A stretch of DNA of 64,000 nt from Paralvinella palmiformis (lineage: Eukaryota; Annelida; Polychaeta; Terebellida; Alvinellidae): contig JAODUP010000150.1 of assembly GCA_025642065.1 (NCBI GenBank), positions 434,001 through 498,000 of the forward strand. The letters are read 5' to 3'. The translations under genes were made by a program, and so were the position numbers. The notes under the pieces were generated by a model. The model had not been told where the DNA came from. It saw only the letters and a list, made by a program, of their open reading frames with translations, and made no database searches. Positions 25,201 to 51,992 of the stretch are shown here, piece by piece (the first letter of the stretch is position 1; each line of letters begins with the position of its first letter).

Positions 25201-26761
25201 GCTATTAACTCAATAACTGTGATAGCTTTGTTTTGTGGGGGGGGGGGATCAGATGTAATCAAAACAAAGTGTAGCTACTATTTATTCAACACACACACAT
25301 TCTTATTGTTTATAGGCATCTTAATAATATGGCTGGATACTCATGCCTGGTCAAATTGTACACATTCTTTGTCTTTGTTGGTAAAGTGAAAGAATGTGAT
25401 GAAAAATCTGATCCAGATGTTCCATCCTAATAGCTAGAACACTCTTACACTGGTCATGACACTGACTCACTGTAACATATATATTTGAGTTATCAGACAC
25501 AGAAATATACAATAAAACTAATGAGACAATTACGGCCATTCTAATAGCCAGTGGCATTGCCAACTGAAGCAAAATCCACATCCCATACAACAAACATAGA
25601 CATCTAAAAACACTTATAGCACACATTTAAGTGCTCCTCTGTACAATTTGGCGAACAATGGGAACATCTGCCACCTCAGCCATACAACCTACAGCACTAC
25701 TGGAGCCAATTATATGTCATAGGTATGTTGGTAGAAGGCCACGGCACCTCAGGTTTTGTTTCTACACCATCAGATCACCTGTTCGGTGAAACAATTACTA
25801 GCAAAACTGAACATCCCAACATATACCTTTAGAAACATAATTTCAAAATACAGCAGTGGAATTTCTGTAAGCTTTATTTGTTTAAGAAGACACCCCCACA
25901 ACACACAAACTCGGTACCTTTCATACTGAGACTACAGTGGGAGAATATACAACAAGATCGCGTAAACTAAAAATTGTAAAAGCCTCAGACATCCTAGGCC
26001 AAGCCAATGGGGGTCTGTTGGCTTTGTTGTCTGACAGAGCCTATAATACTATATAGATCTAGCCTTAGCTTAGAGTTAAACTCAGAGGAATGCTGAATTT
26101 TTAGTATCACAGTTGATACATTTATCTAGTCTAGACTACTGTAGACTGTAGTGTCCATCTGTGGATAAATATCATAAGACAATAATCCACATACTGACAT
26201 AGCATATTTATTACAATACTCATGCGACACACCGTAGACGTAGTTATCTAGCTCTAAACTAGTAGATCTAATACCAATATTTAATGCAAGTAAACAGATC
26301 TAGAACGTAATAAATAACAAAATAGATCGCCTTCCAGTCAAGAAATGGTATAAGAAATAACCTAAATTAGTGCTTTCTTCTGTTAGCAGAATGTATTTAA
26401 CTATTATCATTAAAATCGACATGTTTATAAGTAGCATGTGTAGATTCTAGACTGTAGTGTCATAAATAGCTCTGTATTCACCAACCTACACAACACAAAA
26501 TGACAAATAAATAAAACAGAAAAAAATCGAATAATCGTATTCACTATTCAGTGATCGTTGTTTAAACCGAGTAAGCGAATAGACGGTTTACTGATTAGAT
26601 CTATAACCTATTAGATCTAAACTGTTTATATCAGCTTAACTTCAGCCCCTCAACGTTCAACTTTAAGGAAATAACTCACCATTTTGTGACTGGTCAATAT
26701 CGACAGATGAATCAGTAGAATGTCCATCGTCAAAACTGGACAGATCTAGCACTTTAACCAT
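12688..26761 (-). CDS. ANKRD6: Ankyrin repeat domain protein 6 (diversin/Diego), 12 exons
   Basis: A cytoplasmic adaptor in Wnt and planar cell polarity signalling. Vertebrate diversin links casein kinase I epsilon and the Axin complex and binds Dishevelled. Exons, all bounded by GT-AG: 26761-26680, 24821-24688, 23256-23158, 21281-21183, 20593-20495, 19964-19866, 19690-19592, 18075-17977, 17863-17786, 16223-16080, 15512-15225, 15021-12688. The spliced frame is open for 1217 residues. Exon 2 holds ankyrin repeat 1. Six exons of exactly 99 nt, all phase 0, hold one repeat each (GNSSLHEAAWNGYSKT aligns with the human fourth repeat). Exon 9 holds the eighth. A lysine-rich linker (exon 10) and a tyrosine-containing segment (exon 11) follow, then the coiled coil. 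Repeat order matches human ANKRD6 one to one. The tail is much longer than in the 727-residue human protein. Exon 1 encodes 27 acidic/serine-rich residues, and other first exons are likely. Confidence 0.93.
12879..13098 (-). repeat. Glutamine-rich coding block in ANKRD6
   Basis: Runs of CAA/CAG codons encode up to six consecutive glutamines, separated by H, P, Y, F and R, over roughly 73 residues near the ANKRD6 C-terminus. CAA and CAG are mixed, which limits pure-codon slippage. On the plus strand this appears as TTG/CTG repeats. Confidence 0.9.
13901..14044 (-). repeat. 36-bp coding minisatellite in ANKRD6 (12-residue repeat)
   Basis: Four nearly identical 36-bp units encode the 12-residue repeat SNGGTQPQMRDI. 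They differ by one or two synonymous bases. The unit length is a multiple of three, so copy-number change keeps the frame. The near-identity points to recent expansion and possible length polymorphism. Confidence 0.92.
15142..15179. repeat. (TA)n microsatellite in ANKRD6 last intron
   Basis: A pure TA run between exons 11 and 12 of ANKRD6. Similar short TA runs lie in other introns at 16262-16290 and 19496-19515. Confidence 0.9.
16585..17040. mobile_element. hAT-like non-autonomous element in ANKRD6 intron 9
   Basis: The left end reads CATGGTTCCCGCAG. The reverse complement of the right end reads CAGGGTTCCCACAC. Together they form short terminal inverted repeats. The interior has repeated CATTTCC and TTTCCAG motifs and inverted copies of GGAAAATG. 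The terminal sequence resembles hAT-type MITEs. I found no clear 8-bp target duplication, so the superfamily is uncertain. Confidence 0.4.
17465..17590 (-). mobile_element. tRNA-derived SINE (ANKRD6 intron 9)
   Basis: The minus strand shows an A-box-like GGTACAGTCGGTAGAGGG and a B-box GGGTTCAAATTC, then TGTGGGATGTGTTTC. The same order, tRNA-like head then GGG-TGTTTC, recurs in at least eight other places in the window. Confidence 0.55.
18467..19321. mobile_element. pogo/Tigger-like non-autonomous element in ANKRD6 intron 7
   Basis: An 855-bp segment starts CAGCCAGAACTCGTTAATCC and ends with the inverted match; the reverse complement of the right end begins CAGTCAGAATCCGTTAATCT. Both ends are flanked directly by TA (18465-18466 and 19322-19323). 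A second inverted match, ATGTCGGATAAAC, lies a little further in at each end. CAG...CTG termini and TA target duplication fit the pogo branch of Tc1/mariner. No transposase frame remains. Confidence 0.7.
21833..22293. repeat. 77-bp minisatellite, array A (six units)
   Basis: Six units with an exact 77-bp period, as read from the spacing of ATGTAGTAGCTAAACAAGTC (for example 21841, 21918, 21995, 22072, 22149, 22226). Each unit contains the perfect palindrome ATTAGACTGTCTAAT (first copy 21873-21887). The fifth unit carries a CATTTAATATT variant. The array lies in ANKRD6 intron 3. Confidence 0.95.
22414..22940. repeat. 77-bp minisatellite, array B (seven units)
   Basis: Seven units of the same repeat as array A. 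The CATTTAATATT variant again occupies the penultimate position, and the array is again followed by TTTAATCCAATGTCCTTTA. A shared AACAATAATTATTATTTATC block lies before array B (about 22390) and after it (about 23028). This indicates that a whole array-plus-flank module was duplicated. Confidence 0.95.
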
Positions 26762-28394
26762 GATAAATAAACAATAATTATTAGAAGTCCTCTGCACCTA
26801 GTAGATCTAAATATAGGACCTCGAGATCTACACCTTCGATGTAGACTAACTGATGTTAAAGTTAGCCTTCCTACATTGTGCCATTTGGCCAACTCACAAC
26901 TAGGACGACATCAATCAAAGTGCAATTTATAAACATTCCCGCGGTAGAGTCAATCTGAGCCGTAAAATTCTAGTGTCAGGTGGAAAAGGAACTTCGCTGA
27001 CAAGTTGTGGTCACCTTCCAAACTGAAAATTGACAAAATATGTCCACTCAGCCATCTAGAACACTAATTCAGTAATTGTCATTGAAATACTTGGTGTCAC
27101 AGTACATTCACCGTTCAATATCCGTCACCATATAATGTCCTTTCACGGCCTGAAATCCAAGTAGATCTAGATGAAGTCTAAAATTGGAAATCCACAAAAC
27201 ATGGGCACACTTTGGCGCTAGTAGACTGATTGCCTACACGACCTCGTAATTAGGTCGGATCATATTCAAACCGCTCTTCAATTTAGGCAACTTAATTAAC
27301 AATAAACTAATTAGATGCATCATTCCACCGACAACTACAAACAGTACATTCCGTATATGTTAGTGTTAGCTAACAAACAATCCTCAGATTATACACGGTT
27401 GACAAGGAAATGATAAATATATCCCAATGGCGTTCTTCCCAATATTTCCCGGTTTGGCGGCCGTTTCTTTCCAGCGTTTGGCCGTTTATTGTTCTGAACA
27501 GATAGCTACTACGTCGTTATGGGTCACTGATTAACCTGACCTAGAATAACAATTTCCCATCGACATACTTTAATTTGAACTGAGGCGGCAAAATTGACCA
27601 ATCAGCAGACAGCGCACAGTGTTGGCGTAAGACTCCCCCCAACATACACGAAGTTCGTTCGTTGACACGCACACACACGCCACACACACAGAGTGGCTCG
27701 CGTGCACATACACGCCACACACACACACACACACATTCTCTCTCATACACACACATTAAGCTGTCAGGTTTGAATTAAGTACCTAGTCGTTAAGATGTGT
27801 GCAGGTAGGTGTGGAGAAATGACACGGACATAGATCTATTTCTTGATGCAGCTCGCTGCACACATAACTTTGGGCGAGGATATATATTTAGCTTCAAAGC
27901 CAAACTACACATACTTATAATAATTATAGATCTAGTTATTAATAATAAGTTAATAATAATAAATTCAGTTAACCATGCAAAATCATCATATTTCCAATAA
28001 TGTTTAAAGTTGGCAGTACAAACACAAGTGTTTGTACAAGTAGATCTACAATAAGTTGTTTTTGTTAGTTTTATATGTGGGTACATTATGTCACGGGTTA
28101 TAACCGTTATTTCTATGCAAAAACAACACCACAGACACAGTTAATAACACCATTGTAATATTAACTTCACACTAATGGCTATATGTCATATATCTTACTT
28201 AACCGTAGGTCTGTCATGTCATATAAAGTTAATTATTATTATATCAATATATCACTGATAGTTAATATATGTATACAAAATTGGGAGATTACCTATAATC
28301 GAAAATATAATTAAGGATATCTTCAAAAATTGAACGGGCCAAGATGGAAATAGGGATAATTATTTGTTAAATATGTTCCAATGAAAGAACCTAT

Positions 28395-28431
<37 letters not shown>

Positions 28432-50898: not shown

Positions 50899-50933
<35 letters not shown>

Positions 50934-51319
50934 GTGTGCGTGCATGCATCTGTGTGCGTGTGTGTGTTAAGCGTGTGATATTGCAGGTCTTTTAAGAAAG
51001 GTCACTTCATTTTATATAGTAATCTAATCAATCATCCAAATGTTACATCAATGCATTGTCTCTTCTGATCCCTAATACGTGTGTGTGTGTGTGTGTGTAC
51101 TTTCGAGTATTCTACTTTTTATATAAAGCATTATGGTAAAATTATTTAATGCTTTTTCTGGGCAGTAACATGACAATGTAATTAACATATTAGTATATTG
51201 TCAATTGTTTATAAGTATACTCTTTGAATTCTATATTTGCTGAAAAGTTTAATAAAAATATAATAATATTGTAACAATTTTTGTTGTGTTATTTTTGTTT
51301 ATAGACATCAAATACTTAC

Positions 51320-51992
51320 AGTTATGTTCACTGTCTTCGCCATTATAACATTGTCCAGGATTCAGCATCATTGAGTTACAACATTGTTGTGACTGTTGGC
51401 CACTTAGATCCAGAGATTCACTCCTTGTACGTCTGTCGGATTGATCCTGATTTGATTTATCCCGTGTAATGTCTTCTCCGTCCAGAGAACTGGTACTAGC
51501 CTCACTGACCTTTGTTACAGTAGCACCCGTACTAGCTTCACTGACCTTTGTGCCTGTAGAGCCTGTGCTACACTCACTGGTTTTTGTTACAGTGGCACCT
51601 GTGCTCGTATCACCGACCCCTCGTTCACTATCCTTGTTAGTATTTTTCGTGTTAAGACCTACTCCGAGATCCAGTTTTAGATCACCGTTAGTGCCACGAT
51701 ATTCAAAAGACGATCTGGTTGGATCATCAGGAACATTCCCATCGCCTTCGAAATGTTGTTGTCCCGCCGTCAGTATCTCACCTTGTTCATCCCACCACAT
51801 ACTGTTAGTGGACAGATTATCTCCTCTGATGAAGTAGTTGTCATCCTGATGAACCTCCCATGACCTATTGGTGTCGGATGAGGCACACCTTGAGCAACTC
51901 GAGACACGAGCGAATGTTCCACTTTGAACATTGTATACTTTAGTAGTTTGGTTAACGACGCCACAGAGCGTGCTGTTGTTGCCTTTGAACAT
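51320..51992 (-). CDS. Alternative first exon, probably of ANKRD6 (224 residues)
   Basis: ATG at 51992 (MFKGNNSTLCGVVNQTTKVY) opens 224 codons plus one base and ends at an excellent donor, AACT|GTAAGTA, at 51320. The protein is polar and low-complexity, with a threonine/serine-rich repeat (KVSEASTGATVT and variants, about 1.5-3 copies) and a C-terminal cysteine cluster. No domain is recognised. It ends in phase 1, compatible with ANKRD6 exon 2, which would give about 1414 residues. The frame is open for about 28 codons upstream of the ATG to a TAG, so an upstream acceptor (CCACCCAG|AT) and an internal-exon reading cannot be excluded. Confidence 0.6.

What the first reader, a model, noticed from the sequence alone, without database searches (positions are those of the whole stretch)
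26680..51992. Four ATG-initiated, phase-1 exons suggest alternative first exons of ANKRD6 over 25 kb
Seen in the sequence: minus-strand exons at 51992-51320, 46738-46573, 39936-37611 and 26761-26680 each begin with ATG. They end at good donors (GTAAGTA, GTAACT, GTAAGC, GTGAGT), and their coding lengths of 673, 166, 2326 and 82 nt are all 1 modulo 3. ANKRD6 exon 2 has a phase-1 acceptor, so all four would splice in frame. I see no other minus-strand coding exons between 26.8 and 37.6 kb to receive them. Inference: diversin in this animal has several promoter-specific N-termini (27, 55, 224 and about 775 residues) in front of the same ankyrin core. Known vertebrate diversin starts almost directly at the first ankyrin repeat.
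Basis: partly seen in the sequence, partly recalled or inferred. Interest (0 to 1): 0.75.

Follow-up and report, generated by a model that had tools for sequence, protein, structure and literature searches.

The report
Possible long front-end isoforms of diversin
Upstream of an invertebrate diversin (ANKRD6) gene lie two genuine protein-coding exons that could give this cell-polarity protein long alternative front ends, while two further proposed exons look like chance, and no transcript evidence was at hand to show that any of them is joined to the gene.

Summary
Coordinates, ATGs, donors and phases are as stated. The four exons are not equal. A (51992-51320, 224 codons) and C (39936-37611, 775 codons) are coding: such open frames did not arise in 60 shuffles and codon usage is coding-like. 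B (46738-46573) and D (26761-26680) have no coding signal and are near chance number. Downstream is a full ANKRD6/diversin orthologue (exons 2-12), exon-2 acceptor phase 1. But exon 2 has its own ATG (24816), close to where orthologues begin: in 31 orthologues (of 120 listed matches, of 2168) the N-terminus before the first conserved motif is 10-124 residues, median 19; none resembles A or C convincingly. A and C have no detectable relatives. Best reading: A and C are lineage-specific, probably disordered N-terminal exons spliced in frame to exon 2, as alternatives or in series, giving long diversins beside a short form started in exon 2, comparable with Prickle/Spiny-legs. No cDNA, related locus or expression evidence could be obtained; separate fast-evolving gene(s) remain a serious rival.

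The parts
51320..51992 (-). Exon A: 224 codons from ATG, ends T|GTAAGT (phase 1). In-frame open upstream to 52061; holds a 36-bp in-frame tandem repeat (51486-51593)
52035..52036 (-). Possible acceptor (AG at 52037-52036, exon from 52035, leaving 1 base before the next codon) that would make A an internal exon
   Evidence: score 6.3 with a recalled consensus matrix; 11 confirmed ANKRD6 acceptors score 3.3 to 12.9
46573..46738 (-). Candidate exon B: 55 codons; no coding signal, probably not an exon
37611..39936 (-). Exon C: 775 codons from ATG (TGA two codons upstream), ends G|GTAAGC (phase 1); without splicing the frame stops at 37582 (784 aa)
26680..26761 (-). Candidate exon D: 27 codons, strong donor, A at -3 and G at +4 around the ATG, TATAAAT at 26931; no coding signal
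24688..24821 (-). ANKRD6 exon 2, phase-1 acceptor, own ATG at 24816-24814
23158..23256 (-). ANKRD6 exon 3 (ankyrin repeat)
21183..21281 (-). ANKRD6 exon 4 (ankyrin repeat)
20495..20593 (-). ANKRD6 exon 5 (ankyrin repeat)
19866..19964 (-). ANKRD6 exon 6 (ankyrin repeat)
19592..19690 (-). ANKRD6 exon 7 (ankyrin repeat)
17977..18075 (-). ANKRD6 exon 8 (ankyrin repeat)
17786..17863 (-). ANKRD6 exon 9
16080..16223 (-). ANKRD6 exon 10 (lysine-rich)
15225..15512 (-). ANKRD6 exon 11
12688..15021 (-). ANKRD6 exon 12 with stop codon; protein ends IGKATQV

Best explanation
The locus is a diversin (ANKRD6) gene of an unnamed lophotrochozoan animal. Its ancestral short protein starts at the ATG in exon 2 (24816). 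Upstream on the same strand, A and C are real, fast-evolving, probably disordered coding exons whose phase-1 donors splice in frame to the phase-1 acceptor of exon 2, either as alternative 5' ends or in series (A, then C, then exon 2). Long-form diversins with 224 or 775 extra N-terminal residues (or both) would then exist beside a short form; the extra residues would add binding or targeting surfaces to the same ankyrin core, so that choice of 5' end changes where or with whom diversin acts. Shown: coding nature of A and C, phases, ANKRD6 identity. Inferred: junctions to exon 2, separate promoters, and function. B and D are probably not coding exons.
For: A and C: open frames beyond any of 60 shuffles, coding-like codon usage, also when the codon model is trained on either known gene alone. 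C's donor lies 29 nt before the frame's stop; a phase-1 donor that good is expected there 0.005 times, and for A 0.057 times in the last 71 nt (post hoc). GC falls from 45.5% in A to 15.5% between donor and stop; for C from 43% to 31% over 29 nt. The best coding segments end within 14 nt of both donors. Both donors are phase 1, as is exon 2's acceptor (1 in 9 by chance for two exons; my arithmetic). No other long minus-strand coding segment lies between C and exon 2. Short leaders sit directly before the matching Met in several bivalve models: Mizuhopecten, Ylistrum, Mercenaria, Mactra. All four peptides fall on the disordered side of a charge-hydropathy plot, C only just.
Against: No transcript or related locus was seen. 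None of 31 orthologues of 10 to 124 residues before the core carries such an extension, and exon 2 has its own ATG. The introns would be 12.8 and 26.5 kb, while the longest intron between exons 2 and 12 is about 1.9 kb (from the coordinates). A and C have no relatives to show conservation. A's upstream open frame argues against it being an ATG-initiated first exon. Part of the phase argument is post hoc.
Confidence: 0.5

Rival explanations
1. A and/or C belong to one or two separate, fast-evolving genes (C possibly a single-exon gene of 784 residues) that lie upstream of or inside the 5' intron of ANKRD6, and ANKRD6 itself is made only from exon 2's ATG after a non-coding first exon.
For: C is a complete open frame with its own stop at 37582, and AATAAA occurs at 37165 and 37091 downstream. 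Orthologues need no long extension. No sequence kinship links A or C to diversin.
Against: C's stop lies just after a good in-phase donor and the coding signal ends there; no other coding exons for A or C were found on the strand, though short ones would be missed.
Confidence: 0.35
2. One reading: all four exons, each with its own promoter, are alternative first exons.
For: All four have ATG, open frame and in-phase donor; D has a strong donor, a good start context and a TATA-like box at 26931.
Against: B and D score -1.3 and 1.7 bits as coding and are among 5 such short candidates where shuffles give about 3; B's start context is poor and A may be internal. No control was run for the TATA-like box.
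Confidence: 0.1
3. D (or another leader) is a 5' exon joined to exon 2, non-coding or coding a short leader, while A and C are degenerate or unexpressed coding relics.
For: Short leaders occur in bivalve models; D is the nearest candidate, 1.86 kb upstream, with the best donor.
Against: A and C are open over 224 and 775 codons with coding-like codon usage; relics would soon gain stops.
Confidence: 0.05

Closest known systems
ANKRD6/diversin (Diego-like) orthologues of molluscs, a nemertean and brachiopods
   Same: Ankyrin core 58-73% identical over the compared 275 residues in 31 listed rows; C-terminal regions recognisable; short start near exon 2's Met
   Different: No such orthologue has an A- or C-like front end; the C-terminus here is ATQV, whereas 25 of the 31 end GSDV
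Drosophila Prickle/Spiny-legs locus
   Same: One planar-polarity locus giving isoforms with a common core and unique N-termini; the unique N-terminus of Sple (first 349 residues used as Sple(N)) binds Dachs and Ds (passages of PMC4764577)
   Different: Unrelated protein; there the isoforms are shown by experiment, here they are inferred from sequence
Bivalve ANKRD6 models with short N-terminal leaders (Mizuhopecten and Mercenaria isoform X1, Mactra, Ylistrum)
   Same: Extra in-frame residues directly before the Met that matches exon 2's ATG
   Different: Leaders of 6 to 27 residues, unlike A or C; their exon structure was not seen and a second ATG in the same exon would look alike

Membership tests
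ANKRD6/diversin | N-terminal block of ankyrin repeats orthologous to named ANKRD6 proteins | tested here: met
   Rows named ankyrin repeat domain-containing protein 6 (Mactra, Plakobranchus) and Div (Terebratalia) are 63-67% identical over 275 residues
ANKRD6/diversin | Conserved C-terminal region outside the ankyrin repeats | tested here: met
   Exon 12 alone finds ANKRD6-type proteins of Gigantopelta and Liolophura, E 8e-16 and 7e-18
ANKRD6/diversin | Binding of Dishevelled and casein kinase 1 epsilon | not testable with these tools
   Known for vertebrate diversin: Dvl from passages of PMC12381922, casein kinase from a title in its reference list
Alternative-first-exon (multi-promoter) gene | Upstream coding exons in phase with a shared acceptor | tested here: met
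   A and C coding and phase 1, exon 2 acceptor phase 1; B and D fail the coding test
Alternative-first-exon (multi-promoter) gene | Transcripts joining each exon to the shared acceptor | not testable with these tools
   No transcript of this animal covering the region was found among the matches listed
Alternative-first-exon (multi-promoter) gene | Separate transcription start for each exon | tested here: inconclusive
   TATA-like boxes by pattern only, mostly in TA repeats, none for C, no control
Alternative-first-exon (multi-promoter) gene | First exons conserved in related species | tested here: not met
   No relative of C (7991 candidates scored, 426-1356 aa only) and no convincing one of A to D among 123 proteins at hand; A was not searched in the large database on its own, and the two closest relatives (P0003, P0004) cover only the C-terminal part

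The most novel reading that the evidence does not exclude
A second core planar-polarity gene, diversin, has evolved Spiny-legs-like alternative N-termini in one invertebrate lineage: a 775-residue and a 224-residue disordered front end, each switched by its own promoter onto the same ankyrin core, rewiring the protein's partners without gene duplication.
Probability: 0.2. Interest if true: 0.6.

Novelty: new variant of a known kind. Interest (0 to 1): 0.35.

Why it matters
Diversin is a core planar-polarity and Wnt component that binds Dishevelled through its ankyrin repeats (PMC12381922, passages). In flies Prickle's two N-termini link or compete between polarity systems (PMC4764577, passages). 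If a Diego/diversin gene used the same trick independently, promoter choice on a fixed core would look like a recurrent way to retune planar polarity, and it could be tested directly with cDNA from this animal. If A and C prove to be a separate gene, the locus is ordinary apart from an orphan protein of about 784 residues.

Tried and rejected
Rejected: that all four exons carry equal weight. A basic amphipathic helix in C (residues 449-466) was considered as a membrane anchor: its hydrophobic moment is matched or exceeded in 44% of 300 shuffles of C. Kinship of A with the C-terminal part of orthologue P0074 (E 0.008 in a set of 123 proteins, 30% over 125 residues) was put down to serine/threonine-rich composition, without a further test; the best for C is E 0.82. 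Similarity among A, B, C and D: none (best E 0.69). Pfam hits for A, B, C, D, exon 12 and a stretch over exon 11: none up to E 1. Solved structures for C: none up to E 1. Rfam: no match in the window. A series model (A into C) was looked at: the only phase-1 acceptors scoring 5 or more within C are at 39419 (5.8) and 37751 (6.3), each cutting off much of C, so it is possible but not favoured. Identity of the animal: the tree puts it with two unnamed sequences (P0003, P0004; support 99) and, at 96, with the nemertean Lineus, outside the mollusc rows, but the tool warned of long branches and the outgroup did not hold together (33 rows, the near-copy P0100 left out), so the phylum stays open. A structure prediction was not run, because without relatives a model of A or C would mean little.
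Full report
The observation. On the same strand downstream lies an ANKRD6/diversin gene. I placed exons 2 to 12 by open frame and splice sites: 24821-24688, 23256-23158, 21281-21183, 20593-20495, 19964-19866, 19690-19592, 18075-17977, 17863-17786, 16223-16080, 15512-15225 and 15021-12688. Joined, they read 1190 residues without a stop, counting the split first codon. Exon 2's acceptor is phase 1; exons 3 to 11 are multiples of three.

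How far beyond chance. With a recalled donor matrix and the weakest of the four donors as threshold, the minus strand from 52000 to 24822 has 14 donors with an open, phase-1 ATG stretch of 82 nt or more, the plus strand 1, and 60 dinucleotide shuffles 2.9 on average (sd 1.8); shuffles never exceeded 298 nt. Nine of the 14 lie in A or C. The five outside them include B and D, so B and D are near the chance number. A codon model trained on DIS3 and part of ANKRD6 gives A 50.4 and C 85.6 bits but B -1.3 and D 1.7; the 11 known ANKRD6 exons, mostly in the training set, give 6.9 to 160.5. Training on DIS3 alone or on ANKRD6 alone also gives A and C positive per-codon scores (0.24 and 0.14; 0.35 and 0.21) and B and D values between -0.08 and 0.07. 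In C, another frame of the same strand scored slightly higher per codon when stops were ignored (0.235 against 0.219), so codon bias alone would not fix C's frame; its 775 open codons do.

Where A and C end. C's frame would stop at 37582, 29 nt after its donor; a donor as good in phase 1 is expected there 0.005 times, and for A, 71 nt before its stop, 0.057 times, both post hoc. GC drops from 45.5% in A to 15.5% after the donor, and for C from 43% to 31%; over 300 nt after C's donor it is 37.7%, above the window's 35.2%. The best-scoring coding segments end at 51315 and 37597, close to the donors at 51320 and 37611. This favours splicing over single-exon genes, more clearly for A by composition and for C by the position of the donor.

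Where A and C begin. C has a TGA two codons before its ATG, so it cannot begin further up in frame; no acceptor scoring 5 or more lies between 40275 and 39419. A is open 23 codons further upstream, with exon-like GC (47.8%), a coding-like stretch from 52028 and a possible acceptor at 52035. A may thus be an internal exon. D has an A at -3 and G at +4, a strong donor and a TATA-like box at 26931; upstream ATGs lie between the box and the start. B has a poor start context.

What the orthologues show. A search with the ankyrin core scored 7988 candidates of about 0.55 to 1.75 times 1414 residues; 2168 matched and the best 120 were listed. I took the 31 rows with 58% identity or more as orthologues (25 named: molluscs, Lineus, Lingula, Terebratalia; 6 unnamed); the other 89 rows have 26-39% identity and were set aside as other ankyrin proteins. 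The residues before the first conserved motif (window: DKLRLAASKG) number 10 to 124, median 19; exon 2's own ATG gives 14. The longest (Solemya, 124) looks like a reverse-transcriptase fusion, by my recall of such sequences; Littorina has 92 Gly/His-rich residues. So exon 2's ATG most likely is the ancestral start, and a 224- or 775-residue extension is seen in none of the 31. Mizuhopecten isoform X1 (MMLCQE before MSGP), Ylistrum, Mercenaria isoform X1 and Mactra (MWRHL... before MD) carry short leaders directly before the Met that matches exon 2's; their exon structure was not seen.

Relatives of A and C. Exon C searched against 5.77 billion proteins gave 7991 scored candidates and one match at E up to 10: the window's own open frame, on a contig of 980,058 bases. 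That search covers proteins of 426 to 1356 residues and words from the first 500 residues. Pfam and solved structures gave nothing. Against 123 proteins at hand the best was E 0.008 for A and 0.82 for C. The nearest relatives of this gene, unnamed P0003 and P0004, cover only the C-terminal part, so conservation in close kin is untested.

Interpretation. Phase agreement of A and C with exon 2, the lack of other long coding segments between them, and the leaders of bivalves make splicing to exon 2 the likeliest single account, about even odds. The mechanism proposed, a disordered front end that adds partners to the ankyrin core, is inference; its model is Prickle/Spiny-legs, where the unique N-terminus of Sple binds Dachs and Ds (PMC4764577, passages). 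Whether each exon has its own promoter is unknown.

Literature. Five searches (listings with starts of abstracts) showed no paper on alternative first exons of ANKRD6 among the rows listed (20 of 264, 20 of 3272, 2 of 2, 12 of 2911, 8 of 14). Passages only were read in PMC12381922, PMC4818920, PMC11414264 and PMC4764577. The statement that vertebrate diversin starts almost at the first repeat was not checked against a vertebrate sequence.

Noticed in passing
window 4226-7060 (+): A complete DIS3/Rrp44-type exoribonuclease (PIN, cold-shock, RNB and S1 domains; Pfam) in a single open frame of 945 residues without introns; perhaps a retrocopy or an intron-poor gene.
   Followed up: partly
window 13893-14047 (-): A 36-bp coding tandem repeat (12 residues) in ANKRD6 exon 12 has 4 copies here and 1 in P0002, an otherwise nearly identical protein from an unnamed 3704-base ENA contig, suggesting length polymorphism.
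   Followed up: partly
window 12691-12711 (-): The protein ends ATQV, as in the unnamed relatives P0003 and P0004, while 25 of 31 orthologues end GSDV; both would fit a class I PDZ-binding end (motif recalled).
   Followed up: no
window 51486-51593 (-): Exon A holds three in-frame 36-bp units (TKVSEASTGATV-like) that differ by both silent and replacement changes.
   Followed up: partly
window 41611-42012 (-), 45633-46199 (-), 62387-63955: Open fragments that look to the eye like LINE reverse-transcriptase remains; three of them gave no Pfam match up to E 0.01.
   Followed up: partly
window 21832-22950, 35690-36455: Long arrays of 77-bp and 41-bp tandem repeats in the intron between exons 3 and 4 and in the interval between C and D.
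   Followed up: no
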